NCBI GenBank assembly: GCA_030280995.1
Contig: JASXTE010000013.1
Location: forward strand, 14,614,501-14,678,500
Direction of reading: 5' to 3'
Origin: Hemileia vastatrix
Taxonomy: Eukaryota; Basidiomycota; Pucciniomycetes; Pucciniales; Zaghouaniaceae
DNA length: 64,000 nt
Below the pieces are notes generated by a model. It ran no database searches. It worked only from the letters and a program-made list of their open reading frames with translations, and had not been told where the DNA came from. The translations under genes were made by a program, and so were the position numbers. This document shows positions 1 to 49,586 of this stretch, piece after piece; positions within the stretch are counted from its first letter, which is position 1, and every line of letters starts with the position of its first letter.

Positions 1-361
1 GGTATTTGGTTCGATATTCCTTAGAATTAAATTATAATATCGTATTTACATTAATAGTGGTAAATACTTAAAAGTTAAATCATTGTTATTGTATCTTTCT
101 TTTACCTTCTCAATATTCATTTCTAAAATCCTAAATCTTTGATTATTGAGTTTCCAACCCTTCGTGAGATTTTAAGAGTTATTATTACCTTGGAACTAGT
201 TTATAATTCTTCTCGATCGAACCTCGAACCTATAGCTATTACTTCGAGTGACCTTCGAATAATTTCCTCGAATCATTCCTCTGTGCTTCGAAGAAGTTTC
301 TAAATCCCTCATCTCACTTTCAAGAACATCCTCGACCTTGTGCGTAGGTTGTCCGGTGACA
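1..361 (+). repeat. 5' LTR of Ty3 element 1, partial
   Basis: Near-identical to the last ~360 bp of the 3' LTR (7715-8075), ending in GGTGACA. The U3 part and the TATA box are cut off by the window edge. Positions 23-36 hold the 14-mer AGAATTAAATTATA, the proposed start of the transcript. At least one substitution separates the two LTRs (TACTT versus TCCTT near position 66). Confidence 0.95.
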
Positions 362-376
362 GTATAATTTAATTCT
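362..376 (+). promoter_or_regulatory. Putative self-primer binding site
   Basis: Directly after the 5' LTR, where a tRNA primer site is expected, there is no tRNA-like TGG. Instead, TATAATTTAATTCT (363-376) is the exact reverse complement of AGAATTAAATTATA at 23-36 in the LTR. Tf1/sushi-type chromoviruses are known to prime reverse transcription by folding the mRNA 5' end onto such a site. The geometry here matches; function is inferred. Confidence 0.6.
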
Positions 377-433
377 CCGTAGTTCTCATTCTTTGCACTA
401 CTACGACTTTTTTAGGTGCTTCCAAAATTTTAA

Positions 434-1621
434 ATGGCACCTGTTCAACGCACTCCTCCTACGGGCGCTACTACTAGAGCTCGCGCTAGAGGCAGGCCAA
501 CAGCCACAAGGTCTGTTTCTCGCATTCACTCTTTGGAACCACTCAACCTTAGGGAACGGCAACACTCAGTTCAATCTGTAGAAGACATTCCACAAGATTT
601 TGAGGATTCTAGTGATGAAGAAGAAGGAGAGGATACAATGCATGAGGCACCATCCGCCCCTGCCAATCACCCTTCTGGCCAATCCTCAGAACCGGGACCA
701 TCTAACTCTCTGGAAGATTTCATGAGACTTTTCATGAAAACCCTTTCAAATCCAACGTCTTCAGAGGGATCTAAGTTCAAAACTCCTTCTATGAAATCTC
801 CTGAAAAATTCGACGGAGATCACCCCAACAGATTGCGACCCTTCTTGCAAACCTGCAAGCTACTGTTCCATAATGACCCTCGAACCTTTAACAGCAACCG
901 ATCAAAGGTTGTTTACGCTTCTTCATTCCTAGCCGGGAAAGCAGCAAGATGGTTCGAACCTTATCTACTCATGCTTTCTTCGACAGAAACCCACTTACTT
1001 ATCAATAATTGGGAAAAGTTCGAAGACCATATTTTTACGTTGTTTGGGGACCCTAATGAAACGGACAACGCAGAAATTGAACTTGATTTTCTTTGCATGA
1101 GTGATAATGGTAAAGCCTCTGAATATATCTCGAACTTCAGAGCACTTCAAACTCGAGTAGGTTGGAATGATGCTGCCCTTAAGTATCATTTCAAGAAAGG
1201 ACTTCCTTCGAGGATTCTGGATCAATTAAATCTTCACGGTCAGAAGATGACTACTTTAACAGATTTAATGGATCGAACCCTCGAACTTGACGGCGTTTAT
1301 CAAGGACGACTTCAACATTGTTGATATGCCAACAAATCTCAAGGCCTAAATTTTAAATTGGGACCTTCTTCACACCCACGACCAAATCAATCCTCCTCGA
1401 CTCAATCCAAATCCAATAAGGGAAAGGATAAAACTCGACCAAAAGGCTCAACCCCAGGCGATATCAGCAAAGTACTGGATCCTAAAGGGGAACTTAAAGA
1501 AGCTGAGAGGAAGAGAAGAGCAGATAATGGGTTATGTATGTATTGTGGGGGTAAGCACAAGTTGGAAGACTGTGTAAAGTTGAAGGAAAGAGAAGGTACT
1601 AGTTCGAAGTCAAAAAACTAG
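434..1621 (+). pseudogene. gag: gag of Ty3 element 1 (one in-frame stop)
   Basis: Structural capsid protein that would package the element RNA. The frame opens at ATG 434 and runs to TAG 1619-1621, about 395 codons, with one TGA at 1322-1324. Residues ~1-110 are Arg-, Ser- and Glu-rich. Residues ~115-290 form the retrotransposon gag core (FDGDHPNRLRPF, WFEPYL, FTLFGDPNE, YHFKKGLPSRILDQL). A zinc knuckle starts at about nt 1535, read as CMYCGGKHKLEDC. This is CX2CX3HX4C, one residue shorter than the canonical knuckle. The stop sits between core and knuckle, so a truncated Gag would lack RNA binding. It could reflect CGA to TGA decay. Pol follows in a different frame 14 nt downstream. Confidence 0.9.
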
Positions 1622-1635
1622 TAGATAGTTTACTT

Positions 1636-4600
1636 GTGTGCAAAGCAAACTATCTTATCTCTCCCAGTGCACAGAACCTCCATGTCTTAAGGACTGGAGT
1701 TGCCTTAAACCGCTTGAGATTCATTCTTTTTAAGGAGGATATCCCCTTCAGTTGTCTTATAGACTCTGGAGCTTCAATTTCTTTTGTTAGTTTATCTTTT
1801 GCCGAGAAGCTTCAACTAACATTTACAGATATCGATCGAACTCCCATCTATTTGGTCGAATCAGAGGAACCCAAATATTGGGTAAGTAAGAAAGTTTTAT
1901 GGGTTTTCAACTTTCCGAATTTTCCCCCCTTCGAGTGGGAATTATCAGTCTTGGACGCCCCAAGGATGGACGATACCATTCTTGGCCATGACTTTTTAAC
2001 GCATTGGAATCCCGAAATTGATTGGACCCGGGGATTGATCACCCCACGCTCTAAGTATATTTCTGATTCTTTAATGCAGGTCAATAGGGAGTTAAACAAC
2101 CCGCCTGACAACGTCCTGCTAGAGGACAAATCTCTGCCAGATGACTTGCAAGCATCTGTACCTTCTTTAAATGAGCAATTGGCTAACCCTTCTAGCTCGA
2201 TGACTTCACTCGAAGAGGATTTAAATTGCCTCGAATTAATCGAATTATGCTCTCTCAATACAGGTATCACCTCGACAAATTCTCTCGAAGATGAAGAGGA
2301 TGACCAAATCAACGTTGAAGCCATTAAATCAACTCTACCGGAAATCTACCACGATTTCCTCGATGTTTTCTCAATCCGCAAGGCCGATAAGTTACCACCT
2401 CATCGACCCTACGACCATCAAATAGAGTTAATAGGCCCAGTACCTCCGGCAGGTCCTGTCTATTCTCTATTGAAGGACGAATCTCAAGTTCTTTGAGACT
2501 ACATTGCAGAGAATGTAGCCAAAGGTTTCATCAGAGCCAGTAAATCTCCAACCGGCTCCCCAGTCCTCTTTGTAAAAAAGAAGGACGGTAGTCTTAGGTT
2601 GTGTGTTGACTATAGAAAGCTCAACACAGTCACAAAGAAAAATGCATATCCTGTTCCTCCTATGTCATTACTTCTTACCCTTTTCAATGGTGCTAATTTC
2701 TTTTCTAAAATTGATCTTAGAGGCGCTTACAATCTTATTTGCATTGCAAAAGGTCATGAACCACTGACTGCAATGCGCACTAGATTTGGTAGTTTTGAAT
2801 ATTTAGTTATGCCTTTTGGATTATGTAACGCACCTTCAACTTTTCAAACTTTTGTTAATGATATCTTTCAAGATGTTGTTGAACAATTTGTAGTCGTCTA
2901 TTTAGATGATATTTTAATATTCTCGAAAACACTGGATGAACATATTCATCATGTTCGACAGGTCCTAAATCGTCTTCGAGATCATGGTCTCTACGCCAAG
3001 CATAATAAATGCAAATTCCACCTCAAATCAATTGATTTTTTGGGGTTTACGTTGTCCACTGACGGTTTAGTCATGGATGACAAAAAAGTCCAGAAAATCC
3101 TGGAATGGCCTGAGCCCAAAAACATTAAATCACTCCAAGGATTTTTGGGTTTTGCAAACTTCTATAGAAGATTTATTAAAGATTACTCTAAAACTATTTC
3201 CAATCTTACTTCTCTTCTTAGAAAAGATATTCCTTTTGTTTTTCACTTCTACAGCACGAAAGGAATTCGAAGCACTAAAAACGGCGTTCACCACAGCCCC
3301 AATTCTTCGGCATTTTGATCCTTCGGCCTCGACAATAGTTGAGACAGATGCGAGCGATTATGCTATTGCAGGGGTCATCTCCCAATTAAATCCTGAAACA
3401 AATTTGTTTCATCCTGTTGCTTTTGAGTCACGCAAACTCATAGCCGCGGAATTAAATTATGAAATTCATGACAAAGAGCTTTTAGCTATTATCCATTGTC
3501 TTAAAAAATGGTGTTCTTTTCTTCTCAGCCTAGATAGTCCTTTTCAAATTTTAACTGACCACAATTCTTTGAAATACTTCATGTCTTCCAAAGTGTTAAC
3601 CAGGCGTCAAGCCAGGTGGGCTGAATTTTTGTCTGAATTTTCTTTCTCTATTTCCTATCGCCCAGGAAAAAACTGCATTGTCCCAGATATCTTGTCACGT
3701 CGGGACGACGTTTACCCACAGCGGGGGGACGCATTTGCTGACAAGAACCCAGCAAATGTGCAATCAATCTTCAACGAATCAATGTTAACAACTCATCAAC
3801 TTAATTCGATGACAATTCAATCTTTTCGAAATCCACTATCCAACATCCTCAAAGCTCAGTCGAAGGACGATTATTGTTTAGGGTTAAAAGACAAAATACT
3901 CTCGAAGCAAGGGGCCAAAAGATTTAGTATTGAATCAGGTCTATTAGTCTTCGAAGGTAGAGTAGTCATACCCGACAACAATGAGATAAAATTATGGATT
4001 TTCAATAGTCGACATGATTCTCCGTTAGCTGGTCATTTTGGGGTTGATAAAACCTACCAGTTAATAGCGAGGGATTTCTTCTGGCCAGGTATGACCAAGG
4101 AAATCAAGGCCTATATAAAAGCTTGTTACGAATGTAATAGGAATAAGGCTCCCTGTCACCGGAAGCATGGGTTGCTTCAACCACTTCCTATTCCCTCTAA
4201 ACCTTGGGAATCTTTATCGATGGATTTCATTTCTCAACTTCCTATTTCTAATGATTTTGATGCTATATTAGTAATAGTAGATAGATTTTCAAAAATGTCT
4301 ATTTTTATTAAAACCACTACTACTGCTACAGCAGAAGATTTGTCAAAATTTTTTCTAGAATATGTATTTTCTAAACACGGCTTACCAAATGATATTATTT
4401 CAGACAGAGGCTCATTGTTTGTATCCACATTCTGGACCCAACTGTGTCGACAACTCAATATCACGAGGAATCTCTCCACGGCCTATCACCCTGAAACCGA
4501 TGGTCAAACAGAAAGAGTTAACCAAATCCTCGAACAATATCTTCGAATGTATGTCAGTTACCAACAAGATGATTGGACCACATGGCTACCATTGGCCGAA

Positions 4601-5269
4601 TTTGCTTATAATAACTCGACTCATTCTTCGACACGACAATCTCCCTTCGAAACCATTTATGGACGACATCCTCGATTCAACTCAATTCATGTAGGAACTA
4701 ATCATCCTGCAGAACATTATCTTCGAACTATATCACGACTCCAAGAAGAACTTAAAACAAATTTGGAATCAGCGATTCGAAGATACAAGGAACATGCCGA
4801 CAAACATCGACAATCTGCTCCTTCCTTTAAACCAGGCGACAAAGTATGGCTCGATGCACGGAACATCCGAACAACAAGACCATCAAAGAAACTGGCTGAA
4901 AAGCGCTTGGGACCATTCGAAATCGACTCTGAAGTCTCTAAAACTGCATTTCGACTCAAGTTACCTCCTAAATGGCAGGCGATTCACCCTGTTTTCCATG
5001 TATCTCTCCTGGAACTGGCTCGAGAAATATACCCGGGCAAGAACCAACCCCCTCCGGAACCGGTCGAAGTAGAAGATCATCTAGAGTGGGAAGTAAGTCG
5101 TATCCTTGATTCAAGAATACGCAAGGGGAAACTTCAATACCTTGTGGAATGGGAAGGCTTCCTCAATGACTCAGACAAAACATCCTGGGAACCAGCCATC
5201 AATGTTTCCAATGCTCCTGAACTCCTAAAATCTTTTCATTCGAAATATCCTTTAAAACCAAAACCTTAA
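1636..5269 (+). pseudogene. pol: pol of Ty3 element 1: protease-RT-RNase H-integrase-chromodomain (stop plus frameshift)
   Basis: Polyprotein for cDNA synthesis and integration. Protease: LIDSGAS near nt 1755-1775 and [22 protein letters not shown] and catalytic YLDD at nt 2899. RNase H: ETDASDYAIAG (~3340). Integrase: HHCC finger at ~4010-4140, then D (SMDFI, ~4220), D (SDRGS, ~4402) and E (DGQTERVNQ, ~4515). Chromodomain at ~5065-5240 (EWEVSRILDS, YLVEWEGF, SWEP). Two lesions are visible. TGA 2494-2496 interrupts the protease-RT linker, where relatives usually have Arg. A 1-nt shift near 3235-3245 moves RT (frame 1) to RNase H/integrase (frame 2). The region from ~3250 to the stop at 5267-5269 is uninterrupted. 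Gag and pol are in different frames. Confidence 0.93.
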
Positions 5270-6241
5270 AATTTCTTTATTTAAAATTTTCTTTTCTTTT
5301 CTTTCTTTCTTTAAAATCTAAAACACCTCTTAAATTTCTTAGCCTTGTTTTCTTTTTTCTCTCTTCTTTTTCTTTCTTCTCCTTCTATAAATTTCCTCCA
5401 AAACCAACCAAAAATAAAATCAAAATTAAAATTAAATACAATAAAATAAACTAAAATAAAATAAAAATTAAAATTAAATAAAATAAAATAAAATTAAATT
5501 AAATAAAATAAAATAAAATAAAATAGAATAAACATAAATAATAAAATAAAATAAAAACTCATAAATCTCTCTAAATATTTTCTTCTTTTCTTTTTTCAAT
5601 TCTTTAAATACATTCTTTTCTTAAATTTAAAATTCTCTTCAAAATTTTCTCTTTAAAAAATTTTTTTTATTCTCTCTTTTAAAGACTTTCTTTTTCTTCG
5701 AATCATCAAATCCTGTATGGCACGACCATTTCCTCGAACTTAACTTCAACCCCTGAATCTCCCTATAATAATTCTTCGAAACAAATAAATCTTCTTTTCA
5801 AACTCTCTTAAATTCTACACTTTGTTTTTTCTTTTCTTTCTCCTTTTTTTTTCAAACTAAAATTTCTTTTAAAAAAAAAAAAAAAAATCCTCAATTTAAC
5901 AACTCATCTCAATCACAAAACCGTTTTTTTCCTCTCTCTTTTCTTACATAAAAAATTTTCCTTTTAAAACACTAAAACTTCCTTCAATTAAAACAACCTT
6001 TTCCTTTTTCTTTCTTTAAAACTTCTTCTTTCAAATTCTAAAATTTTTTATTTAAAACTTCTTTTTTCTTTTTTTCTCTTCTTTTTCTCTTTCTCAAATC
6101 TTGTAAAATTAACAACATTCACCCACAATATATAAAAAAAAAAAAAATAATACTAATAATAAAATAAATAAAAAAAAAATAATAATAAAATAAAACTAAA
6201 ATACAATTTTTCTTCTACTTCTTTCCATCTCCTTTTCATTT
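5270..6241. other. AT-rich spacer between pol and the antisense gene
   Basis: No credible gene. The stretch is pyrimidine/A-rich, with runs of AAATA/AAATT (5400-5560), T-rich blocks and A runs near 5870-5888 and 6130-6180. Pol (+) and the antisense gene (-) converge on it. A shared termination/polyadenylation zone is a reasonable inference, but no specific signal is proven. Confidence 0.6.
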
Positions 6242-7193
6242 TCAAATTTTTTCTTTTAATTTTTCTCGAACCAATCTTTTCATTTTTTCCAAAACTACCC
6301 TTATCTCCTTCCTGTATTTATCAAATACCTCCTCCTCTCCTACCGGAACCACCTCTCCAATCTCCAAGAGCTCCTCCGCCACGTCAAAGGAAGCAGCGTC
6401 AATAATAGCGTCAACCTCCCCACATAGTTCTTCCGCGAACCTTACTCGTCGACCTTGACGAGGTTTCTTCGACCACACCTGGTCCAGGGTGTCTTTGGGC
6501 TCTTCAACCACTTCCGTGGCTGGAGGGTTTGCCTCAGTTGGTATAACCGGCGCAGGCTCCGCAATCGGCTCTTCCAGGTTATTCGATGTCTAAAACACGA
6601 CTCATCAGTAACTTCATCATTGAAATAAAACAATTAAAACTTACCTCGAAGATGGGATCAGGCTCCAGAAATAACCTGGGCGCCACTTCGACTTCTACCT
6701 CTCTCTCTTCCTCATCGTCCTCAATGACCACCCAACGCTTCTTGGGTGCCCGCCCTGGAACAGGGACTTCATCTTCATTTTCCTCCACCAATTCATCGAC
6801 CTCTTCCTCGACACCTCGCTTCGAACTCGTGGCCTGGGTTACCCAGGTTGAGATCTCGTTGTTCATCTCCTTATCATTTTCCCCCACCAATTGTTCATCT
6901 TTGATCGAGACATCCCAAATGTCTTCTACCACCTCTTTAGTCTTTGGAATTACCCAAAATTTTGTTTTTGTGAATCGATTTTCGATTTCCGTGTTCTTCG
7001 TCAACGCATCGCATGCCACTCGCCGCCAACAGCAAAACTCGCATTTCTGGCGAGGGCCTCGAGTCGCCGTACTTTCGACACAGAAATATTCCATGCTTTC
7101 ACAGGCCGTGCAAGTCCGTGAAAACTGTCGTGTGATTATTCCCCCATCCGCTTTAGGGTGTGGAGGCGTGGGTGTGGGGGTAGGGCAGTTCAT
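6242..7193 (-). CDS. Antisense accessory gene: Zn2Cys6-like cysteine-cluster protein (two exons, 298 aa)
   Basis: Opposite in orientation to gag-pol and starting 109 bp from the 3' LTR. Exon 1 is 7193-6645 (183 codons) and exon 2 is 6589-6242 (115 codons plus stop). They are joined by a 55 bp intron, 6644-6590, with GTAAGT and TTTTAG ends and phase 0. Cysteines at residues 28, 31, 38 and 51, 54, 61 give CX2CX6C-X12-CX2CX6C, matching the spacing of fungal Zn(II)2Cys6 clusters. The second half (CEFCCWRRVACD) ends in the typical CD. Residues ~95-185 are very acidic, and the C-terminal ~40 residues are Glu/Lys/Arg-rich and probably helical. No stop or shift interrupts it, although gag and pol on the other strand are broken. 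Function is unknown; DNA binding is inferred from spacing only. Alternative: another zinc-binding module. Confidence 0.7.
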
Positions 7194-7301
7194 TATAAAA
7201 TAAATAATTAAGAGATGAGGGAAAAAGTATTAGACAAGTGAAATTAGTGTGGGAAGATGGTTCAAGCTCAACGGAGTTCGCGTTTTTTATACCCGGGCAT
7301 C

Positions 7302-8075
7302 TGTCACGCGCCACGTGACACTCGAGGCGAAATTAACTCAATAAATCAATAATATCGAGTCCTACATCTATACTCGAAGCGCAGAAAGCAATTCTCCATA
7401 GCAACTGCGATTTTTCCTTTGTGTACTTACTATTTAACTGCGCTAGCCTAAACTCTAAATCTAAATTAGTCAATCTCCCAATAGGGTACCTTAGTCCTTT
7501 TCAATAAGCGACGCACAGCGCTAGGATCAACGAAATAGTACAGTAGTAGTTTTTTATTAAAGTTTTGTTAATTAATTAAAAAGGGGTATATTGAGCATGG
7601 GCGGATATTTAGTGAAGAGGGTCTAAGTGTATGTTAGTAATGGTCAATGGAATGGGAATACTGCGATGGAAGGAAGGTCAATGCGAAGAGGAACAAAGGA
7701 TATAAAAGGGGTTGGGTATTTGGTTCGATATTCCTTAGAATTAAATTATAATATCGTATTTACATTAATAGTGGTAAATCCTTAAAAGTTAAATCATTGT
7801 TATTGTATCTTTCTTTTACCTTCTCAATATTCATTTCTAAAATCCTAAATCTTTGATTATTGAGTTTCCAACCCTTCGTGAGATTTTAAGAGTTATTATT
7901 ACCTTGGAACTAGTTTATAATTCTTCTCGATCGAACCTCGAACCTATAGCTATTACTTCGAGTGACCTTCGAATAATTTCCTCGAATCATTCCTCTGTGC
8001 TTCGAAGAAGTTTCTAAATCCCTCATCTCACTTTCAAGAACATCCTCGACCTTGTGCGTAGGTTGTCCGGTGACA
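7302..8075 (+). repeat. 3' LTR of Ty3 element 1 (774 bp)
   Basis: Starts TGTCAC and ends GTGACA, short inverted ends typical of LTRs. The boundaries agree with the solo copy at 62864-63672, which has a clean target duplication. A TATA box (TATAAAAG, 7701-7708) lies ~30 bp before AGAATTAAATTATA (7737-7750), so transcription should start near 7730-7737. No polypurine tract abuts the LTR at 7301; the nearest purine run (7206-7224) is ~80 bp upstream, which is odd. Confidence 0.95.
7701..7708 (+). promoter_or_regulatory. TATA box in the LTR
   Basis: TATAAAAG followed by GGG, about 30 bp upstream of the conserved 14-mer at 7737. The solo LTR keeps both, read on the minus strand (TATA near 63233-63240 and the 14-mer at 63192-63205). 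This supports a real promoter. Confidence 0.65.
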
Positions 8076-8387
8076 AATAATTAACGGGCTTTAATACAAA
8101 AACAGGTTGTATTTTTTGTGGGATATTGGATATGATAAGGTCTTTTGTAAAAAAAACTTATATTGTTTAAAAGTATTCCTGAATCAGATGTGGGATAATC
8201 ACTACAAAAAATTGTAGTACTGTGGGCAATAAAATATATGCACAAGCAGTAAAGAAAGGACCAAGTGAACCCTTTTTGTGCAGTGGGAATCATTAGAGTG
8301 GAATTGTGGATGAAAAATATAATTCATTATTACCATTTTATTTAATCAAAAAATTTATAATATTAAAAAGAACTATTGATTAATTGG
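8076..8387. other. Flank between Ty3 element 1 and the satellite
   Basis: AT-rich single-copy-looking sequence with no gene or repeat that I recognise. The expected 5 bp target duplication after the LTR would be AATAA. Confidence 0.4.
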
Positions 8388-11300
8388 TATTTGACCTTTG
8401 TGCCTCACTCATATTTATCATTTGATTGATTTTTGTCACCATTATGTTATTAATATTATAAGTATAGCAAAAACTCGTGTGCCAAATGCATACAGGGTGA
8501 TGTTACACCTTTTATAATATTATTAAATAAAGGTAAAAAAATATGAAAATGATTTGTTTTACAAAAAATAAATTGATATACAAAAGCAATATGAGGGATA
8601 AAAAGGTAAAATTAATCTCAAAGAGATCAATCATGAAAAACAAAATACTAGTAAAATTCTTGCTCTCAAGAGCCAGTAGAAGTGTTGAAAAAAATGGGAG
8701 CCATCAGGGCTAAATTGTAATAAGTGACCTTTTTTTTAAAGATAAAAAATTATACACCTGAGGTTGGGAAGAACAACAGGTGGATGATTCAGCTAAACAA
8801 AACTGCTTGTAGTGAAGTTTAATAAAAAAATGTTTTTTTGTTGCCATATAGAGAATTGATCCCATCTGACTGCACGTGACTAAAAGTGTCTAGCACAAGT
8901 TTGGCTGAACTTGTGCTGGACACTTTTATGATGGAGAGTAGCTTGGGTGGAAATTTTCTTCAGTTCCTTCATCTTGTATTTCTCATAAACATGTCTACTG
9001 GTATTTGATCAGTCTGTATCTTTCATATTTATCATCCGATTAATATTTTATCACCATTATATTATTAATGTTATTAGTATAGCAAAAACTTGTGTGCCAA
9101 ATGCATACCATGTGAAGTTATACCTTCAATAATTTTTTAAAAAAGACATAAATAAATATGGAAAGGGTTAGTTTTACAAAAATTAAATAGAAATTTAAAA
9201 GTAAAAAGAGGAATAAAAGAGTAAAATAAAAGTCAAAGAGTTAAAATATGAAAAAAATACTGGTAAAATTCCTGCTATCAAGAGCCAGTAGAGGTGTTAA
9301 AGCAAATGGGAGCCATCAGGGCTTAATTGTAATAAGTGACCTTTTCTTTAAAGATAAAAAATTATACACCTGATATTGGGCAGAACAGCAGGTGGATGAT
9401 TCAGCTAAACCAAACTACTTCTAGTGAAATTTGATAAAAAATTTTTTTTGTTGCCATACAGAGAATTGATCCCATCTGACTGCACATGACCAAAAGTGTC
9501 CAGCACAAGTTCAGCCGAACTTGTGCTCGACACTTCTATGATGGAGAGCAGCTGGGGTAGAATTTTTCTTCAGTTCATCTGGTATTTCTTACAAACATGT
9601 CTACTGGTATTTTATCTTTGTGCCTCACTCATACATATTGTTTGATTAATTTTTTGTCTTAATTATATTATTAATTATATAAGTATAGCAAAAAATTGTG
9701 TGCCAAATGCATACTGAGTGATGTTACACCTTTTATAATATTATTAAAAAAATGTATAAAAATATTAAAATGATTTATTTTAAAAATCATTAATTGATAT
9801 CCAAGAGCAATATGAGGAATAAAAAATTAATTTAAAGCGATCAAATATGAAAAACAAACTCCAAGTATTATTGCTAATATCAAAGGCCAGTAGAGATGTT
9901 GAAGCAAATGAGAGCTTTCAGGGATAAATTGTACTTAATTGATTGTTTTTTAAAGATAAAAAATTATGTACCTGTGGTTTGGATGAACTCTAGGTGGATA
10001 ATTTAGCTATATCAAACTACATCTAGTGAAGTTTCTTATCAAATAATTTTTTTCATTTCCATAGAGAGAATTGATCCCATCTGACTGCACCTGACCAAAA
10101 GTGTCCAGCACAAGTTCGGCTGAACTTGTGCTGGACACTTTTATGATGGAGAGTAGCTAGGGTGCAGGTCTTCTTCAGTGCAACTGTCATTTTTTTAAAA
10201 CATGTCAAATGGTATTTGATCTTTCTGTGTTATTCATATTTTATTATCTGATTAATTTTTTGTCATTAGAATTTTATTAATTTTATTAGTATAGAAAAAA
10301 CTTGTGCGCCAAATGCATGCCATGTTATATTACACCTTTTATAATATTATTAAAAAATGTTAAAAAAATATGAAAATGATTTCTTTTCCAAAATTATAAA
10401 TTAATATCCAAATGTAACATGAGTGATAAAAAAGTAAAGTAAAAGAGATCAAATATGAAAAAGAAAAATTCAAGAAAAATTCCTGCCTTCAAGAGCCAGT
10501 AGAGGTGTTGAAACAAATGGGTGCCATCAGGGCTAAATTTGATAAAATTTAATTTTTTTTAAAGATAAAAAATTTTTCACCTGAGGTTTGGAAAAACTCA
10601 AGGTGGATAATTCAGCCATACCAAACTACTTCTAATGTGATTATTTAGCATTTTTTTAAATTTAATTTCCACAGAGAGAATTGATCCCATCTGACTGCAC
10701 CTGAACAAAAGTGTCCAGCACAAGTTCGGCCGAACTTGTGCTGGACACTTTTATGATGGAGAGTAGCTAGGGTGGAAGTGTTTCTCAGTACATCAGTTTT
10801 TTGTTTTTCACATTTCTATTGGGGTTTTAACTTTTTTTATCATTCATATTTATCTTATAATTAATTTTTTGTCACCATATATATTATTAATGTTTCTAGT
10901 ATAGCAAAAACCTGCATGCCAAATGCAAAATTGGTGATGTTACAACTTTAATAATATTATTATATAAAGTTAAAAAAATATGAATATGTTTATTTTTTAA
11001 AAAAATAAATTGATATTTAAAATTAAAAAGAGTAATAGAAAAGTAAAATGAAAATAAATAAGATCAAATACGGAATAAAAAATACAAGTAAAATTTTTAC
11101 TATCAAGAGCCAGAAGTGGTGTTGGGACAGTTGGGGACCCCTAGGTCAAGACTTGGTCTAAACTTACTTTTATGTATAGCTAACAAATTTTGAACTGAGG
11201 TTTGGACAGACTTCCAGGGGACAATTTTACAATATTAAACATTCTTTACTTCAATAATTGAGTGAAATATCATTTTTATTGCCATAGAGAGAATTTATCT

Positions 11301-14300
11301 CATATGACTTCATGCAACCAAAAGTGTCCAGCACAAGTTCGGCCGAACTTGTGCTGGACACTTTTATAATTGAGAGTAGGCATACAGAAAATCTTCTTAA
11401 ACTCAAAAGGGATTTCTTATAAACATTTCCACTGGAATTTGATCTTTCTGTGTCATTTAAATTTACCATTTGATTAATTTTTTGTCATCATTATATTGTT
11501 AATGTTATTACTATAGTAATAACTTGTGTGAAAAATGCATACCATGTGGTGTTCCACCTTTAATCATATATTATTAAATAAAGGTATTAGAGTATGAAAA
11601 TTATTTATTTTAAAAATTAAAAATTGATATCCAAAGCAATATGAGCAATAAAAAAGTAAAATAAAAGGGATAAAATAAGAAAAAAAAATCTAAGGAAAAT
11701 TCCCACTATCAATAACAAGTAGAGGTGTTAGTCAAATGTGCACCACCAGGGCTAAACTTGCACTATATTTTCTTTTTTGTTAAACCAAATAAAGTGTCCT
11801 GATGAGTTTTGAAAATTCATCAGGAGGACATTTTGGCAATATCAAACTACTTATTGTGCAATGATTGAGTAAAATGTCATTTTCATTTCCATAGAGTAAA
11901 TTTATCCCATCTGACTGCATGCAACCAAAAGTGTCCAGCACAAGTTTGGCCAAACTTATGCTGGACACTTTTATGATGGTGAGTATCTAGGGTGCAGGTC
12001 TTCTTCAGTTCATCAGGTATTCCTTATAAACAAATCCACATGTATATGATCTTTCTGTGTCATTCGTATTTATCATTTGATTCATTGTTTTTCACCATTA
12101 TAATATTAATGTTATTAGTATTGAAAAAATTTGTAAGCCAAATGCATACTGGGAGATGCTACATCTTTCATAATCTTATTAAATAAAAGTAAAAAAATAT
12201 GAAAATTATTAGTTTTACAATAAATAAATTGATATTTGAAAGCAAAAACAGGAATAAAAAAGTAAATTAAAGTGATTAAATATGAAATTAAACATTCAAA
12301 TAAAATTTCTGCCATCAAAGATAATTTGAGTTTTCAGACCAAATTTGCACCACCAGTTCTAGATTTGGAATATGTTTTCTTTTTTTTAAAATTAATAAAA
12401 GTTTCCACCTGATTTTTTCCAAAAAATCAGTAGGATAGTATAGCAGTATAAAGCTACTTCTTGTGCAATGATTGAGCAAAAATTCATTTTAACTTCCATT
12501 GAGTAAATTTATCCCATCTGCCTGCATGCAACCAAAAGTGTCTAGCACAAGCTCAGATGAAATTGTGCTGGACACTTTTATGATGGAGAGTAGCTAGGGT
12601 GAAAGTCTTCTTCAGTTAATCTTATATTCATTTTAAAAATGTCTATGGGTATTTGATCTTTCTGTGTCATCCATATTAATTATTTGATTATTTTTTAGTC
12701 ACCATTATATTATTAATGTTTTTAGTATAGCAAAAAAATGTGTAATGAATGTACACTGGATGATTTTACAACTTTAATAATATAATATAATAAATATAAA
12801 AAAATGTGAAAGTTATCAGTTTTACCAAAATAAAATTGATATTTAAAAGCTAAAGGATAAATAAAAGGGTAAGATTAAAATTAAAGAGATCAAACATGAA
12901 ATAAAGATATTAAGTATAATTTCTGCTATCATGAGCCAGTAGAGGCTTCAGAAAAAATGGGCACCATTATAGATTAACATGGATCAAATTTACTTTTTAC
13001 CAAAGGAAAAAATTGTCTACCTTAGGTTTGGACAAACTTTCAGAGGACAATTTGTCTATATAAAACTACTTTCAGTGCAATGATGGAGTGATAATTCAGT
13101 CTCATTTCCATAAAAAGAAATGATTGCGTCTGACGGCATGCAACCAAAAGTGTCCAGCACAAGTTTGGCCAAACTTGTGCTGGACACTTTTATCATGAAG
13201 AGTAGGCAGGGTGCAAGTAATTTTTAATCATCTGAAATTTCTTATAAACATTTCCACTGTTATTAAGTCTTTGTGCCTCACTCATATTTATCAATTGATT
13301 AATTTTTTGTCACCATTATATTATTAATATTATCAGTATAGCAAAAAATTATGGGCCAAATGAATACTGGGTGATGTTACACCTTTTATAATATTATTAA
13401 ATAAAGGTAAAAAAATATGAAAATGATTTATTTTAAAAAAAATAAACTTCTATCCAAAAGCAATATGAGAGGAATAAAGTAAAATAAAAGAAATAAAAGA
13501 TGAAAATTAAAATCCAAGTTAAATTCCTGCCATAAACAGAAAAAAGAGATGTTGAATTAAATTAGAACAATCAGGGCTAAACTTGCACTAAATTTTCTTT
13601 TTTGTAAAAATAAAAAAAAAATCCACTTGAGCTTTACCAAAACTTCAGCATGAAAATTTTGCCATATCAAACTACTTCTAGTGTAATTTTATATCAAAAA
13701 TTTATCTTCATTTCCATAGAGAGAATTGCTCCCATCTGACTGCACCTGACCATAAGTGTCCAGCACAAGTTTGGCCAAACTTGTGCTGGACACTTTTATA
13801 ATGGAGAGTAGCTAGGGTAGAATTTTTCTTCAGTTCATCTAGTATTTCTTACAAACATGTCTACTGGTATTTTATATTTGTTCCTCACTCATTAATATCA
13901 TTTGATTAATTTTTGGTTGCCATTATATTATTAATTTTATAAGTATAGAAAAAACTCATGTGCCAAATGCATACCAGGTGATGTTATGCCATTTATAATA
14001 TTATTAAATAAATGTATAAAAATATGAAAATAGTTTATTTTAAAAATTATTAATTGATATCCAAAAGCAATATTAGGAATAAAAAATTAAGTTAAAGGGA
14101 TCAAATATGAAAAAAGAAATCCAAGTAATATTCCTACTATCAAAGGCCAGTAGAGGTGTTGAAGCGAATGAGAGCCATCAGGGATAAATTGTACTAAATT
14201 GACTTTTTTTCAAAGATAAAAAATTGTGCACCTGTGGTTTGGATGAAATCTAGGTAGAAAATTTGGCTATGTAAAACTACTTCTAGTGAAGTTTTTTATC

Positions 14301-23675: not shown

Positions 23676-24721
23676 ACTGAAAACAAAAAGAAAAAGATTA
23701 GAGAAAGAAAAAAACAAAGGAAAAAAAATAAACTTACGAAATATGTGTTTATAAAAAAAGACCACCCGGAGAAAGAAAAAGCAATTGGGTGAATAAAAAT
23801 AAGAAGTGGAGGGGGGAGAATGCTGAAAACAGAAAGAAAAAGATTAGAGAAAGAAAAAAAAACGAAGGAAAAAAATAAACTTACAAAATATGTCTTTATA
23901 AAAAAAGACCACCAGGAGAAAGAAAAAGCAATTGGGCAGTAAAATAAGAAGTTGAGGGGGGAGATTGCTGAAAACAGAAAGAAAAAGATTAGAGAAAGAA
24001 AAAAAACTTACAAAATATGTCTTTATAAAAAAAGACCACCAGGAGAAAGAAAAAGCGATTGGGCAATAAAATAAGAAGTGGAGGGGGGAGAAAGCTGAAA
24101 ACAGAAAGAAAAAGATTAGAGAAAGAAAAAAAACAAAGGAAAAAAAAAGAAACTTACGAAATATGTCTTTATAAAAAAAGACCACCCGGAGAAAGAAAAA
24201 GCAATCAGGCGATAAAATAAGAAGTGGAGGGAGGGGGGAGAAAGCTGAAAACAGAAAGAAAAAGATTATAGAAAAAAAAAACTTACGAAATATGTCTTTA
24301 TAAAAAAAGACCACCAGGAGAAAGAAAAAGCAAGCGGGCAATAAAATAAGAAGTGGAGGGAGGGGGGAGAAAGCTGAAAACAGAAAGAAAAAGATTAGAG
24401 AAAGAAAAAAAAATGAAGGAAAAAAAAACTTACGAAATATGTCTTTATAAAAAAAGACCACCGGGAGAAAGAAAAAGCAATCAGGCGAATAAAAATAAGA
24501 AGTGGAGGGATGAGAGTGTCCAGGATTGATAGGAGGGTGGAATTGTTCACCAGGAATTGATTGGGAGGATGGGGTGGGCCAGCTCTGGTGGTGACATGTC
24601 ACAAGGTAGATGCTCAATCAAGTTTTTTTTTGACAGCTGATGACACGGAAAACCTACCAAAATTGCTGTGAACAAGTGGCCGAAAAATTTACAGCTGCAC
24701 CAAGACTAAATAACATAGCTG
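23676..24721 (-). repeat. Right inverted repeat: mirrored exon/intron cassettes
   Basis: Reverse-complement counterpart of the left repeat, read on the minus strand. Six GTAAGT donors lie near 23738, 23880, 24008, 24152, 24283 and 24432, each followed by a T-rich tract and TTTTCAG. The terminal ~220 bp match the left end closely, but cassette lengths differ between arms, so they have evolved by unit gain, loss or conversion. The last acceptor leads into the transposase. Confidence 0.8.
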
Positions 24722-24738
24722 CATCCTCTGAAACATCG

Positions 24739-26430
24739 ATGGATTCCGCCCAGAACGACGATCTTATGCTTGTTGACGCGACTAACGCGCCTCCTCCTTT
24801 ACCGCCTTCTCCCGTCCCTCCTGACCTCCCTCTGGCCCCGGAATCCCCACCCCTTCAAAGCTCTACTCTGCCTCCTTGCCCTAGAGCAAGTAGCCCTGAT
24901 CTGCCTGCCGCCTCTCTGTCCCCCAAACAGGCCCGTCTTCAGAAAAGACGCAGATTTTCTTCTCCCCCAGCCCCCTATAGACCCCCATGCATTGACCCTC
25001 CCAGCACCTTGGAGGAAGCTAGAGCTGCTCACCCTGAGCTCTTCTACGATCCCTCTGCCTCTCCCCCTGGTCACCCTCCTGCCCCTCAGTCACAAACCCT
25101 TAACGACTCATGCCATAATCCTGATAACCCGTTTGTGGATTTTGGCCTTACCTCTGCTCCCCGTGCCCCACTTCCTTCATCAGTCAATCATGATGCCCCA
25201 GCAGCACGAGTCGTCCGTCTTGTGGGTTTGTCACGTGCCACAAATGCTGTAGCACTGTCATCCTGCCTAACCAATCTCCTTGATACCATCAAAGAACCTA
25301 CCCGCAATGGAACCAAGGTTACAGTTCATAAAGCCGTTCTATCAGACATCAAGGCTTTAGCAGCTGCAATCTCCCACCAAGCAAATCAGTCAGATTTTCA
25401 CCAGGTACCTCCCAATGCCCCTCCTCAATACGTCTCCACTCTTACCAACAAAATCGACGAGCTCCTTACCCGCTTCCCTCCTCTTCCTTCTCCCACTACA
25501 TCATCCCCCTCCCCTCCCAAAAATATCCCCTCTTCTCGCCCTTCATTTGCTCAAGCAGCTTCCACTACTCCCCCACCCTCTGTTCAACGCTCCCATCCTC
25601 CATCAGGCCTCCCTCATTTCACTATAAAGCAATCTAACCCTTCCTCCCCTGTCCTCACCGATCTTACCAACTCTCAACTTCTCAACATGCTCAATAATAA
25701 AATTAAAGCAAAAAATATACTCAACCCCTCTTCTTCCTCAGTTATACGGGTCCGAGGAGTTATCAGACACAAATCTAATGATTTCAAAGTTATTGTAGCT
25801 ACCCCTCTTGACCTCAACACCCTCACCAGCGCATGGCAATCTTGGACCCCTCAAGGTTTGATTTACAAAGCTCCTACATTTTCAGTAGTTGTCCATGGGG
25901 TGCCAACATATTACGACTTTGATAACCAATCTGACATTAACACTTTGATTGAAGACAACCCTGAAACCCTCAAGTCCTTATACCGTGTCACTTGGTTGAG
26001 AAGGCCTGAAGCTAGAGCGGGAAAAAACCATTCCTCTGCTGTCCTTCACCTTCTAGACAAAAACATTGCTGACTCCTTATCCTCTCCTTCTCCTCCTTTT
26101 CCTTTATATATTGAAGGACAGGTTCGTCGTACAGAGGCTGTTAACCACGAGCAAAGTACCTGCTTCAAATGCTGGGGTAAGGGCCATTTATCAATTCATT
26201 GTGCCCTTCCTCCCAGATGTTCCAATTGTGCCGGCCACCACAGCACTAAATCCTGCAAAGCGCAACAACTATCCTCACCAGTGTGTTTTAGATGTATTGA
26301 TTCCCTTCCCCATGATCACCCAATCAAAACAGCTCAAGCATCACTTCATTCGCTCCTCAATGACGCTTCCCCCCCTCCCCTCTTTCACCTTCCTCACTTA
26401 CCCGCTTGCCCTCTCAATAAGTCTATATGA
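24739..26430 (+). CDS. LINE ORF1 (gag-like RNA-binding protein, 563 aa)
   Basis: Nucleic-acid-binding protein of the LINE RNP. I chose ATG 24739 because it lies at the 5' boundary. An open frame continues 99 nt upstream, but that part is Tc1 inverted repeat and target duplication. Residues 1-150 and ~250-310 are Pro/Ser-rich low complexity, with KQARLQKRRRF as a possible nuclear signal (~63-73). CCHC knuckles: CFKCWGKGHLSIHC (~475-488, CX2CX4HX4C) and CSNCAGHHSTKSC (~494-506, CX2CX3HX4C). A CFRC third site follows. The stop overlaps the ORF2 start as ATGA (26427-26430), which suggests coupled re-initiation. Confidence 0.9.
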   Translation: MDSAQNDDLMLVDATNAPPPLPPSPVPPDLPLAPESPPLQSSTLPPCPRASSPDLPAASLSPKQARLQKRRRFSSPPAPYRPPCIDPPSTLEEARAAHPELFYDPSASPPGHPPAPQSQTLNDSCHNPDNPFVDFGLTSAPRAPLPSSVNHDAPAARVVRLVGLSRATNAVALSSCLTNLLDTIKEPTRNGTKVTVHKAVLSDIKALAAAISHQANQSDFHQVPPNAPPQYVSTLTNKIDELLTRFPPLPSPTTSSPSPPKNIPSSRPSFAQAASTTPPPSVQRSHPPSGLPHFTIKQSNPSSPVLTDLTNSQLLNMLNNKIKAKNILNPSSSSVIRVRGVIRHKSNDFKVIVATPLDLNTLTSAWQSWTPQGLIYKAPTFSVVVHGVPTYYDFDNQSDINTLIEDNPETLKSLYRVTWLRRPEARAGKNHSSAVLHLLDKNIADSLSSPSPPFPLYIEGQVRRTEAVNHEQSTCFKCWGKGHLSIHCALPPRCSNCAGHHSTKSCKAQQLSSPVCFRCIDSLPHDHPIKTAQASLHSLLNDASPPPLFHLPHLPACPLNKSI

Positions 26431-29400
26431 TAGGACAAACTAATATTTTGCCAAAGTTTCCTTTCACAGTCTTTCAGCTGAACTGTCACCGTTCTTTCTA
26501 TGTTTTTCACTCACTCTTTAATGACCCCGCAGCTCCAACTTATGATGTCCTGGCTGTTCAAGAGCCTTTCCTTTCTCCCGATCATATTTCTCCAGCCCCT
26601 GCTCAAGGATGGCACCTCATTGTACCGCCCAGCCTTTCCCCCCCACCTCACTCAACTCCCATCCGAAGCTGTTTTTATATTAACAAAAATCTTCCTCTTC
26701 ATCTCTTCACTTCTCTTCCTTCCCCTTCCACCGACCTCACCCTCCTCCTCTTGAATCTCAACCCCCTCCCTCTTCTTCTTGTTAACATTTACAACCCACC
26801 TCAAACTTTTTCATCCACTCAACATATTTTTTCTTCCCTCTCCCCTTTCATTAATACCCCTACTTTTCTGTTCACTGACTCAAATCTTCATCATGATCTA
26901 TGGGCTAGTGCGAATAATCACTCCTACAATCACCCTGCCGCTACCCCATTCCTAGATTCCATTACTGATCTGAACATGACACTAATTTCCCAACCTGGTA
27001 TTCCGACTTTCTGCAACACCAGAAATTTCACGTCTGTGATTGATCTAGTGTTTGCAAATCGCTCTGCCTTGAATTTGGTGATTAGTTGTGTCACGGACAG
27101 TGATGGATCCCTTTCACATCTCTCTGATCATAGATCTATCATCACTCGTTTCCTCCTCTCCCCTCTTCCAAAGACACACAAACCCTTTCGCAACTGGAAG
27201 AAGTTTGATGAGTCTTCTCTTTCTATTTTTCTTTCCTCCATCACCCCTCCTTCTCCCTCCCCCCTCCCCTCTGACATAGACCAGGCTGCCGAATATGTCA
27301 CTTCCCTGTTTATCGAACTAATGGAGCGTTTTGTCCCGCTGCAGCAGCCCGGCTCGTCGTGTCGTGTATGGTGGAACAGAGATATCTTGGATCCCCTCAA
27401 GAAATCCTGTTACAGTGCTCAGAGAAGAATGCGTGCCTCCCCTACCCCTCACAATACGGCCGAGTTTCTGGCAGCGCGCAAAACGTTCCGGTCCAAAATT
27501 AAATATCTACGAAAATCTCATTGGCAAAACTTCTTATCCTCTCTCACTCCTCTTACCCTTCACAAACCTGCTAAGTACCTTTCTCTACCTTCTGACCCTC
27601 GCTCTAACCCACCTCTAACAGATGAGTCAGGTGCCATAATCACTGACAATCTCTTAAAAGCCTCCATGCTTTTTGAAGGCACCTCAGTTGCCTCAATTCC
27701 ATGCGATTTGTCTTCAATTCCCCCTCCCTTCCCTACTTCTCCCCTCAAGTCTTCGCCTTTCACCAAACAAGAGCTGATATCTACCTTGCTTAAGACCAAA
27801 AGAGGCAGAGCACCTGGCCCTGATGGGATTCCCAACGCGTTTCTACACTGTAATCCTAATGCTATTGCTGACATTCTATTACCTCTGTTTCAACAGTGCT
27901 TGAATACTGGTCATTATCCAACCACTTGGAAACAAGCTAGATCAGTAATAATCCCCAAGCCTGGCCGCCCAAATTACTCAGTCCCCAGTGCTTACCGCCC
28001 TATTGCACTCCTCAACACCATGGGCAAGCTGTTGGATTCAATGCTAACAAACCGTTTGTCCTTTTTCATGGAATCAGGCCATTTACTCCCCGAAAACCAT
28101 TATGGTGGGCGTCCTCTGAGAAGTACGTCAGACGCTTTACTGCACCTCACTGTCTGGACCAAGGATCAGTGGAGGCTAGGTAAGGTTGTTGGCGCCCTTT
28201 CTCTTGATGTCAAAGGTGCTTTCCCATCTGTAGACATTCGAAGACTCCAACACACTCTCTTCTCACTCCCACTTCCTCATGACCTCATATCCCTCATCAC
28301 AAACTCTTTAGAAGGCCGCAACACCAATATATCATTCTCCACATATGAATCTCCCTACGCCTTTTTTCCTAAGGGCCTTCCTCAAGGCTCTCCTTTATCT
28401 CCTCTCCTATACATCATTTACAATTCGTCTTTGCTCATGCTTCCCTCTCTTTCCAGATCCTGTTTAGCTATTGGATATATTGACGATGTCATTTTCCTAT
28501 CAGCTGACAAGAACCCTTCCAAAGTTACTACAACATTGTCTCAATTGGGTGCAGAGGCTCTTGAATGGGGTCGATCTCATGCAGCAGTCTTTGATGTTCC
28601 CAAAACCAAATGGCTATTGCTGACCAAACGTCTCCCCCTTCTAAAGTCACCCCCCACTCTTCTTTTCAACGATCAATCTCTGGTGCCGGTCTCTTCGTTC
28701 AAATGGCTGGGCATGGAACTGGACTCTACACTCTCTTTCAAACCCAATGGCACAAAAGTCGTTGCCAAGGGATTTCAAGCTGCCAATACAATTCACCGTC
28801 TTGCTTCGTCTGGCTGGGGCATCCCACTCCGTCAGTATAAGCTTCTAATTAACTCTCTCATTCACTCAAGAACAGACTATGCTGCCATTGTCTGGCACAA
28901 CCCAAGAATTTCCTCTCGAACAACAAGAATGTTGCAAGTGGTCGACAACAGGGCCATGCGAAGAGCACTTGGTTGCTTCCGTTCTACCCCTGTGTGCTTT
29001 CTTCTTCATGATTCGGCTTCTCTCCCAAGCAAACAGCGCTTAGATCTTGTCGTGCGTAAAGCATGGGCGAGACTTCTCTCCATTCCCCCCTCTAATCCGA
29101 TGGCTCGTCTAGCTAGATCAATAATCTCTTCTCCTCTGCCCAAACTGCATCTCCACCCCCTACACCTCCTATCTTCCCCCTGCTTTTTCCCTCCTCACTT
29201 CCCTCTTAGTAATTTGGACTCCCGTTCCCTTGCAAGTTTCCCTCCCTGGGCTCCCCCTCTTTTTGAGGTGGTCATTGATATGCCAAAAGAAAAAGCCCTT
29301 GACAACGTTTTGAACTCCTTGTCATCTCGCCCTCTACCCTCGCACTTCATTTACACAGATGGGTCAAGATCCGAGAAGGGCGTTTTCGCTGCCGCTTTTG

Positions 29401-39336: not shown

Positions 39337-39423
39337 GCGCTGGGGGTTTTTCGGTTACTAGCGCTCCTAGTGTCGCTAACGCTAGTGGAGTTTTGGTTGG
39401 CTAACGTTTCAGTGCCCGCGAGT

Positions 39424-49083: not shown

Positions 49084-49586
49084 ATGTTCAGATTTCTTTC
49101 AAAATCTGCCTCTGACATGGGCCCTTGCCAATACTGCATTGACAACAATCTGATCTGTGCCATCACACCACCAGATCATCCATACATAAACCCCTGTGAT
49201 GTCTTCCAATTCAGAAAGAAGACTTGCTAAAGACATTTTACATTATCATCTTCAACAGCTTCACCTCCACCTCAACCTGGTCCATCTTCCACCAGCACCA
49301 AAAGATCCAGGCCATCCATCCTGATACCCAGATTAGTAAAAAAACTACACCCTTCAAAAAAGAGTGTGAACACCACTACAGCAATCAATACCACCATGCT
49401 TGGTCCATCTGATGGTAAAAACTTTTATTCCTTCCTTCTACCTTTAAAGTTGATGACTTCTCAGTTCCTCCATCTTCTGCCAGTGATGATGAAAATGTAG
49501 GATCCATTGAACCCCCAACACCTAAACACTTGCCCATCATTAAGGCCAAGTTCCAAAACACTCCTCTGAACAAAAAAAATTTCTAA
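49084..49586 (+). pseudogene. Antisense accessory gene A of Ty3 element 2 (Zn2Cys6-like)
   Basis: Runs opposite to pol and starts ~50 bp inside the 3' LTR boundary (in-frame ATGs at 49084 and 49117). Reads CQYCIDNNLIC, 12 residues, then CDVFQFRKKTC. This is CX2CX6C-X12-CX2[F]X6C, the same spacing as the element 1 antisense protein, with the fifth Cys changed to Phe. TAA 49228-49230 follows at once. A Ser/Pro/Lys-rich tail continues in frame and then shifts (VDDFSVPPSSASDDENVGS) to a stop near 49586. Decayed but clearly coding-like. Confidence 0.6.

What the first reader, a model, noticed from the sequence alone, without database searches (positions are those of the whole stretch)
6242..7193. 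Ty3 element carries an intact, spliced antisense gene with a Zn2Cys6-pattern protein
Seen: two exons with a 55 bp GTAAGT...TTTTAG intron in phase 0, 298 codons, opposite to pol. Cysteines 28/31/38 and 51/54/61 form CX2CX6C-X12-CX2CX6C. Known: fungal Zn(II)2Cys6 regulators use CX2CX6CX5-12CX2CX6-8C. Inference: the retrotransposon encodes its own DNA-binding or RNA-regulating factor, transcribed from the 3' LTR side. Its frame is uninterrupted while gag and pol on the other strand are broken, which hints at separate selection or recent mobilisation in trans. I know of no described equivalent.
Basis: partly seen in the sequence, partly recalled or inferred. Interest (0 to 1): 0.88.

Follow-up and report, generated by a model that had tools for sequence, protein, structure and literature searches.

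The report
Retrotransposon's antisense zinc-cluster gene, real
A Ty3 retrotransposon present in many copies in a rust-like fungal genome carries, backwards between its enzyme gene and its end repeat, an intron-bearing and strongly conserved gene for a probable zinc-cluster protein; antisense genes of this kind are known in other retroelements, but this one is a new variety.

Summary
On the minus strand, between pol and the 3' LTR of a chromodomain Ty3 element, lies a 298-codon, two-exon gene (7193-6645, 6589-6242; 55-bp intron). It is no chance frame. In 68 aligned copies splice and branch signals, start and TATA are kept in 63-67; intron length drifts (54-74) while exon 1 stays in frame in 67. 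Against sister copies dN/dS is 0.06-0.12 (7 of 8; one undefined), lower than in any other frame. All six cysteines, CX2CX6C-X12-CX2CX6C, are kept in 53 of 55 main and 7 of 13 (mostly decayed) sister copies.

The Zn2Cys6 reading is partly supported. Pfam Zn_clus stays below cut-off, and its first half fits this protein's second half: reversed half order. A second Ty3 lineage in this genome has an antisense gene with identical spacing and order that passes Pfam. Best reading: a nuclear, nucleic-acid-binding accessory regulator, analogous to HTLV-1 HBZ, Grande gene23 or Retand TRP28 proteins (inferred; no RNA data).

'No described equivalent' is wrong for the general kind. Intactness beside broken gag/pol is weak evidence: pol stops lie mostly at CGA codons, as CpG decay would give. 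Unexplained: this region diverges several-fold more than pol on internal branches.

The parts
6645..7193 (-). antisense gene, exon 1 (codons 1-183)
   Evidence: translation; frame kept in 55 of 55 main and 12 of 13 sister copies
6590..6644 (-). intron, 55 nt, GTAAGT..TTACTGATGA..TTTTAG, phase 0
   Evidence: GT in 67 of 68, AG in 67 of 68, branch CTRAY in 63 of 68 copies, lengths 54-74; GT..AG in 8 of 8 copies found by LTR alone
6242..6589 (-). antisense gene, exon 2 (codons 184-298 and stop)
   Evidence: first 300 nt in frame in 52 of 55 main and 11 of 13 sister copies, among them in-frame indels of 3, 12 and 18 nt
7011..7112 (-). six-cysteine cluster, residues 28-61, CX2CX6C-X12-CX2CX6C
   Evidence: all six kept in 53 of 55 main and 7 of 13 sister copies, 5 of 8 copies found by LTR alone
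6723..6746 (-). basic stretch PKKR(R/W)VVI, residues 150-157, resembling a nuclear localisation signal (motif recalled, no predictor run)
   Evidence: KKR[RK] in 27 of 55 main and 5 of 13 sister copies; KKRW in 17 and 1 (codon 154: CGG 37, TGG 23 of 68)
7262..7302 (-). block between LTR and antisense ATG with TATAAAA at 7291-7285 (minus strand): proposed antisense core promoter
   Evidence: divergence 0.07 (7 main copies) and 0.10 (6 sister copies) against 0.18 and 0.36 in the adjoining leader; the neighbouring LTR end is similarly low (0.05 and 0.16). TATA in 52 of 55 and 12 of 13
7302..8075 (+). 3' LTR TGTCAC..GTGACA; CACGTG at 7312-7317; sense TATAAAA at 7701
   Evidence: start set by the sister-family solo LTR with 5-bp duplication ATTAC
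1..361 (+). 3' part of the upstream LTR (1 difference in 361 from the 3' LTR); the element is the last of five regularly spaced hits
   Evidence: hits on C84
434..1621 (+). gag, one internal TGA
   Evidence: Retrotrans_gag
1603..5269 (+). pol: protease, RT, RNase H, integrase, chromodomain; one internal TGA and one frame change
5270..6241 (.). AT-rich spacer on which pol and the antisense gene converge
   Evidence: its part 5960-6241 diverges 0.12-0.14 (main) and 0.41 (sister)

Best explanation
The element is a chromodomain Ty3 retrotransposon with a third, antisense gene. SHOWN: the gene recurs in 68 aligned copies, keeps splice signals and is selected at the protein level, and its N-terminus keeps a six-cysteine pattern of zinc-cluster spacing. 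INFERRED: it is transcribed from its own TATA promoter beside the 3' LTR and spliced. INFERRED: its intron survives because only the sense RNA, from which it cannot be spliced, is reverse-transcribed. INFERRED: the protein binds zinc, enters the nucleus through a KKRR-type signal, and uses the basic second half-cluster (CxxCRWRRVACD in most copies) to bind DNA or RNA of the element, regulating LTR transcription or another nuclear step, as HBZ does and as is proposed for the plant antisense proteins.
For: Gene structure. Selection: omega 0.06-0.12 against 7 of 8 sisters, 0.11-0.19 against 7 nearer copies, median omega falling from 0.67 to 0.15 as dS grows. Splice signals kept while intron length drifts. 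The second codon position of the antisense frame changes least in 12 of 12 comparisons; the open sense frame 6547-7203 shows the reverse order in 12 of 12 and is open in 26 of 55 main and 0 of 13 sister copies. All three sister elements whose two LTRs are in the hit list carry the gene. Six cysteines kept while Cys55 and Cys239 are not. A second Ty3 lineage carries an antisense gene with the same six-Cys spacing that passes Pfam Zn_clus (27.6 bits); 24 of 24 neighbouring gene-pol pairs there are on opposite strands, 23 with the gene 3.3-4.4 kb beyond the pol piece. Profile comparison of the two N-termini: P 0.00085, six Cys aligned without gap, though probability only 24%.
Against: No RNA evidence of any kind. 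Pfam Zn_clus at most 10.8 bits against 21; only 4 of 13 members matched at all. No homologue at E up to 1 among 5.8 billion proteins, fungi included (control). AlphaFold2 useless (mean pLDDT 31 and 37.5). In classical Zn2Cys6 proteins the basic half comes first (recalled; profile order); here it is second. The TATA block is no better conserved than the LTR end beside it in the main copies. Acidic stretches follow the cluster. dS against the sisters is saturated, so omega there is rough.
Confidence: 0.6

Rival explanations
1. The antisense protein is a structural or nucleic-acid-chaperone accessory acting in the particle or on the element's RNA (a zinc-knuckle-like role or an integration-targeting partner of the chromodomain), not a transcription regulator.
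For: Six Cys and basic residues would suit RNA as well as DNA; selection on the protein is equally expected.
Against: Separate antisense expression is an odd way to make a particle protein; the KKRR-type stretch and acidic regions fit a nuclear regulator better (inference); the second lineage's cluster scores as Zn_clus.
Confidence: 0.2
2. The antisense RNA matters more than the protein: transcript overlap makes dsRNA that limits copy number, the protein being secondary.
For: The whole antisense mRNA would be complementary to the sense genomic RNA; antisense RNA control is discussed for such elements (PMC7264820 passages).
Against: omega near 0.1 and mostly in-frame exon indels show selection on the protein.
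Confidence: 0.12
3. A host Zn2Cys6 gene was captured by the element and is a passenger.
For: The assembly holds 43 longer Zn_clus hits besides the repeat family (counted), many on small contigs; Zn clusters are typical of fungi (recalled).
Against: Passengers decay; this gene keeps omega near 0.1 through a family split with saturated dS, and a similar gene sits in a second Ty3 lineage.
Confidence: 0.05
4. Chance ORF with fortuitous cysteines, or a by-product of selection on the overlapping sense frame 6547-7203.
For: A 218-codon sense frame is open here and in 26 of 55 main copies; it shares the wobble position and has omega 0.15-0.24 over exon 1 (12 copies).
Against: The sense frame is open in 0 of 13 sister copies, has stops in all 12 diverged copies tested, and its second codon position changes more than its first; antisense omega is lower; splice signals are kept.
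Confidence: 0.02

Closest known systems
[quoted passage not shown]
   Same: Same place and orientation; conserved across copies; gene23 has its own promoter and a nuclear protein; TRP28 predicted to bind DNA (PMC7264820 and PMC11963269, passages seen)
   Different: No shared Pfam family; here a fungal chromodomain element, an intron, and a six-Cys cluster
brtn of Boty (Botrytis cinerea)
   Same: Antisense additional gene in a fungal LTR element (cited in PMC7264820 and PMC8365987, passages; the original paper was not seen)
   Different: Sequence not compared (not available here); no zinc cluster mentioned in the passages seen
HBZ of HTLV-1
   Same: Antisense, spliced, 3' LTR side, factor that lowers sense transcription (PMC3185765 passages)
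   Different: bZIP factor with starts inside the LTR (R and U5); no bZIP here; here the proposed TATA lies just inside the internal region
Fungal Zn(II)2Cys6 cluster (PF00172; GAL4, PPR1)
   Same: CX2CX6C and CX2CX6C with a basic CxxCRxxKxxC half
   Different: Halves in reversed order; below Pfam cut-off for this family

Membership tests
Zn(II)2Cys6 binuclear cluster (PF00172) | six Cys, CX2CX6CX5-12CX2CX6-8C | tested here: met
   kept in 53 of 55 and 7 of 13 copies
Zn(II)2Cys6 binuclear cluster (PF00172) | profile match above curated cut-off | tested here: not met
   9.6-10.8 bits against 21 where matched; 4 of 13 members matched at all. The second lineage's gene meets it: 27.6 bits, one copy
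Zn(II)2Cys6 binuclear cluster (PF00172) | basic residues between Cys2 and Cys3 | tested here: not met
   CESMEYFC is acidic/neutral; the basic loop lies between Cys5 and Cys6; profile positions 3-15 align to residues 51-63
Zn(II)2Cys6 binuclear cluster (PF00172) | cluster fold | tested here: inconclusive
   mean pLDDT 31.0 and 37.5
Zn(II)2Cys6 binuclear cluster (PF00172) | binds two Zn and DNA | not testable with these tools
   -
antisense aORF of LTR retrotransposons (aORF-3R) | antisense, between pol and 3' LTR | tested here: met
antisense aORF of LTR retrotransposons (aORF-3R) | conserved as coding in many copies | tested here: met
antisense aORF of LTR retrotransposons (aORF-3R) | transcribed from its own promoter | tested here: inconclusive
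   TATA kept in 64 of 68, block about as conserved as the LTR end beside it; no RNA data
HBZ-type retroviral antisense factor | bZIP domain | tested here: not met
   no bZIP family in Pfam scans at E up to 10
Ty3 chromovirus | gag, RT-RNaseH-integrase order, chromodomain | tested here: met

The most novel reading that the evidence does not exclude
Several Ty3 lineages of rust-like fungi carry an undescribed class of antisense, element-encoded zinc-cluster regulators whose two half-clusters stand in reversed order. These regulate their own LTRs (a fungal counterpart of HBZ), and the gene region diversifies faster than the rest of the element in active lineages, perhaps under selection for escape from homology-based silencing or from cross-regulation by older copies.
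Probability: 0.3. Interest if true: 0.8.

Novelty: new variant of a known kind. Interest (0 to 1): 0.62.

Why it matters
Antisense accessory genes of LTR retrotransposons are known, but the papers seen here give those of retrotransposons no proven function. One genome with 150 scored copies per search (thousands of unscored candidates), two lineages and a recognisable metal-cluster motif is a natural experiment for finding out what they do. It also adds a self-encoded candidate regulator to the question of how Ty3 elements came to fill large rust genomes, and a possible half-swapped form of a very common fungal DNA-binding domain.

Tried and rejected
Protein searches: phmmer and profile searches of 5.8 billion proteins gave nothing at E up to 1. 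The control with the RT found Austropuccinia psidii at mostly 56-66% identity, so fungi are in that set; the method needs shared 5-residue words, so distant relatives can be missed. Viral-contig scans with the protein and the RT confirmed nothing. PDB: two chance-level hits (E 0.28, 0.32) and none. TRAM and Death_3 Pfam hits (best E 0.0095 and 0.025; bits below cut-off in those shown) were taken as chance.

Rejected: the sense frame 6547-7203 as the selected one. My first count for it (2 of 68 open) was wrong because the stretch included its own stop codon; one search replaces it. Local mutation rate after insertion as the cause of the fast divergence (terminal branches 1.5 times longer, internal 8 times). 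Deaminase-type hypermutation (changes go both ways). Escape selection acting on the mRNA alone (intron and spacer diverge too).

A count of copies with both exons in frame (23 of 55 and 1 of 13) looked adverse. One search puts most of it in the last 48 nt (in frame in 22 of 55 and 0 of 13, nearly always one base off), which I take for an effect of aligning the AT-rich gene end; not proved. Copies were mostly picked by likeness to exon 1 of the window copy or of L062, which favours open frames; only 8 copies were found by LTR.

Full report
What is there. The window starts inside an LTR. Gag (434-1621) and pol (1603-5269) follow, with Pfam hits for gag, protease, RT, RNase H, integrase and a chromodomain: a Ty3 chromovirus. 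The 3' LTR runs 7302-8075; its start is set by a sister-family solo LTR at 62862-63671 (-) flanked by the 5-bp duplication ATTAC. On C84 five hits on one strand lie 7714-7719 bp apart: the window's element ends a tandem array. The minus-strand gene was reproduced exactly as described: 298 codons, two exons, 55-bp intron, cysteines as stated.

The genome. It is 747.6 Mb in 791 contigs. The RT's best hits are Austropuccinia psidii (60-66% for the top ones), so I take the host as a rust or near kin; the species is not known to me.

The copies. Searching the genome with exon 1 gave 150 scored hits of 6877 first-look candidates. I fetched 40 of the 150 at steps down the list, beside the 8 given (one is the window copy). 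A search with the sister solo LTR gave 40 scored hits of 7047 candidates. I fetched 20 flanks: 8 held the gene nearly whole, 2 held part of it, 4 matched over at most 56 bp and 6 not at all by blastn (one of the six, L053, showed a weak partial protein match). In three cases both LTRs of an element were among the hits; all three elements carry the gene (L049, L050, L051). A search with a sister exon 1 gave 150 scored hits; I fetched 12, of which 7 group with the main and 5 with the sister family. In all 68 copies were aligned, the window's included: 55 main, 13 sister.

Selection. Between the window copy and 8 sister copies dN is 0.18-0.21 and dS 1.7-3.1 (one undefined); omega is 0.06-0.12. 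Summed differences at codon positions 1/2/3 are 521/320/1173. For one pair alone, 60/33/141, chi-square p 3e-18. The two shifted frames give mean omega 1.1 and 1.8; the opposite frames 1.0, 2.4 and 0.22. Against 7 nearer copies omega is 0.11-0.19. Within the main family median omega falls from 0.67 at dS under 0.03 to 0.15 at 0.15-0.3, as expected when inserted copies decay freely and the active lineage is selected. The same test on known genes of the same copies gives 0.21-0.31 for pol (5 sister copies) and 0.17-0.21 for gag (3 copies).

Which strand? The sense frame 6547-7203, open in the window, shares the wobble position with the antisense frame, so low omega alone does not settle the matter: over exon 1 it has omega 0.15-0.24 in 12 copies. 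But in the antisense frame the second codon position changes less than the first in 12 of 12 comparisons, as in real genes, and in the sense frame it is the other way round in 12 of 12; each of the 12 has sense-frame stops within exon 1; the sense frame is open in 26 of 55 main and 0 of 13 sister copies. The antisense gene reads to codon 290 or beyond in 40 of 55 main and 2 of 13 sister copies.

Splicing. GT in 67 of 68, AG in 67 of 68, CTRAY branch site in 63 of 68; intron lengths 54-74. Exon 1 is in frame in 67 of 68; the first 300 nt of exon 2 in 63 of 68, with indels of 3, 12 or 18 nt among them. None of the 68 lacks the intron. An intron opposite to the genomic RNA is invisible to splicing of that RNA, so it can survive retrotransposition (inference).

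Promoter. Between LTR edge and ATG lies a block with TATAAAA on the minus strand at 7291-7285. It differs by 7% in 7 main and 10% in 6 sister copies, against 18% and 36% in the next 68 nt; the LTR end on its other side differs by 5% and 16%. TATA was found in 52 of 55 and 12 of 13, ATG in 52 of 55 and 12 of 13. The block abuts the site where a polypurine tract is expected, so a role in plus-strand priming could also conserve it.

The protein. The N-terminus carries CX2CX6C-X12-CX2CX6C; the six cysteines are kept, Cys55 and Cys239 are not. Cys55 and Trp154 of the window copy look like CpG decay of arginine codons (codon 55: CGY 43, TGY 18; codon 154: CGG 37, TGG 23 of 68), so the usual second half reads CEFCRWRRVACD. 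Pfam Zn_clus aligns its positions 3-15, its first and basic half, to this second half, at 9.6-10.8 bits against 21. The half order is thus reversed relative to GAL4-type clusters. A PKKRR-type basic stretch, acidic stretches and a basic C-terminal segment follow. AlphaFold2 gave no usable model.

A second lineage. A Zn_clus search of the genome gave 127 hits; 43 span more, and 84 match only the first 18 profile positions or fewer (counted). Of 7 fetched from the short class, 5 read ...CELC(A/T)RYQVPCLMSNPNLPGRTACDxCR(V/L)KKVKCN..., the same spacing and order, and 2 are diverged forms. One copy scanned passes Pfam at 27.6 bits. By sequence its second half aligns weakly with the first halves of PPR1 (E 0.023) and GAL4 (E 1), beside chance hits at like E-values. 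Of 150 scored gene hits and 150 scored pol hits, 24 pairs lie within 7 kb: all 24 are on opposite strands, and in 23 the gene is 3.3-4.4 kb beyond the pol piece. That pol piece has no retroelement Pfam hit itself; its identity rests on a 75% match to the window at 53.2-53.7 kb, which adjoins frames with Integrase_H2C2 and RT_RNaseH and RT and integrase matches at 25-29% to the first element. Two diverged copies differ 12/9/30 and 14/9/31 over 58 codons, again a third-position excess. So two distant Ty3 lineages carry antisense genes with this cluster. Common origin is suggested (hhalign P 0.00085 but probability 24%; 1 of 2000 shuffles reached the alignment score, scored with arginine at residue 55), not proved.

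An unexplained pattern. In the same copies the antisense region diverges far more than pol. Main copies: dS 0.08-0.41 against 0.03-0.08 (18 pairs); sisters: dS above 2 in 4 of 5 pairs (1 undefined) against 0.20-0.25. LTR, gag and pol are of like order (gag somewhat above pol); leader, antisense third positions, intron and spacer are higher. Close copies show no such excess. In trees of 27 matched copies the summed internal branches are 0.708 (antisense exons) and 0.084 (pol); without the main-sister branch 0.19 and 0.04. Terminal branches sum to 0.73 and 0.49. 11 of 24 splits are shared; no pol split with support of 95 or more is missing from the antisense tree; 4 antisense splits with such support are missing from the poorly resolved pol tree. 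This argues against a local mutation rate acting after insertion and gives no clear sign of swapping, but recombination that homogenises gag, pol and LTR is not excluded.

The 'intact beside broken' argument. In 22 main copies a 505-codon pol piece has 1.9 stops on average (3 of 22 stop-free), 31 of 42 at codons reading CGA in the window copy; the antisense gene has 0.4 (13 of 22 stop-free), 8 of 9 at CGA codons. The copies were chosen by antisense exon 1, and 15 of 55 main and 11 of 13 sister antisense genes stop early. The contrast in one copy says little.

Comparison with print. [quoted passage not shown] brtn named in PMC8365987, passages; Zhao 2011 itself not seen). Retand's TRP28 proteins are predicted to bind DNA (PMC11963269, passages). 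HBZ is spliced, antisense and regulatory (PMC3185765, passages). In seven searches of the held library no listed title or abstract start describes a zinc-cluster antisense gene in a retrotransposon. In the rust transposon paper PMC12210899 (passages) 'zinc' and 'additional ORF' do not occur; 'accessory gene' occurs twice in places I did not see. The library lacks most subscription papers.

Verdict. Observation confirmed; interpretation partly supported; new variant of a known kind.

Noticed in passing
G000:C84, window 1-8075 and upstream: Five copies of the element stand head to tail, 7714-7719 bp apart, apparently sharing LTRs: a tandem array.
   Followed up: partly
window 49117-49227 and 50420-50653 (+): Weak zinc-cluster-like relics (E about 0.03) on the strand opposite the decayed Ty3 pol at 53.2-56.1 kb (-): possibly that element's own antisense gene.
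   Followed up: partly
antisense region 5960-7261 against pol and LTR: Leader, antisense third positions, intron and spacer diverge several-fold more than pol and LTR, on internal far more than on terminal branches.
   Followed up: partly
window 7262-7302: No purine-rich tract abuts the 3' LTR; the sequence there is TATACCCGGGCATC, so plus-strand priming of this family is unclear.
   Followed up: no
pol and antisense copies, L009-L048 and L069-L105: Stops lie mostly at codons that read CGA in the window copy (31 of 42 in pol, 8 of 9 in the antisense gene): suggests CpG decay in this genome.
   Followed up: partly
window 8385-13866: A diverged repeat (75-83% alike at 8385, 9605, 10207, 12042 and 13269) with a palindrome around AGCACAAGTTCGGC(C/T)GAACTTGTGCT in several units.
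   Followed up: no
window 24634-30254 (+) and 34603-39354 (-): Two further retroelements with long open frames: a LINE-like pair (598 and 1277 aa) and a Copia-like polyprotein (1583 aa), judged from the look of the frames only.
   Followed up: no
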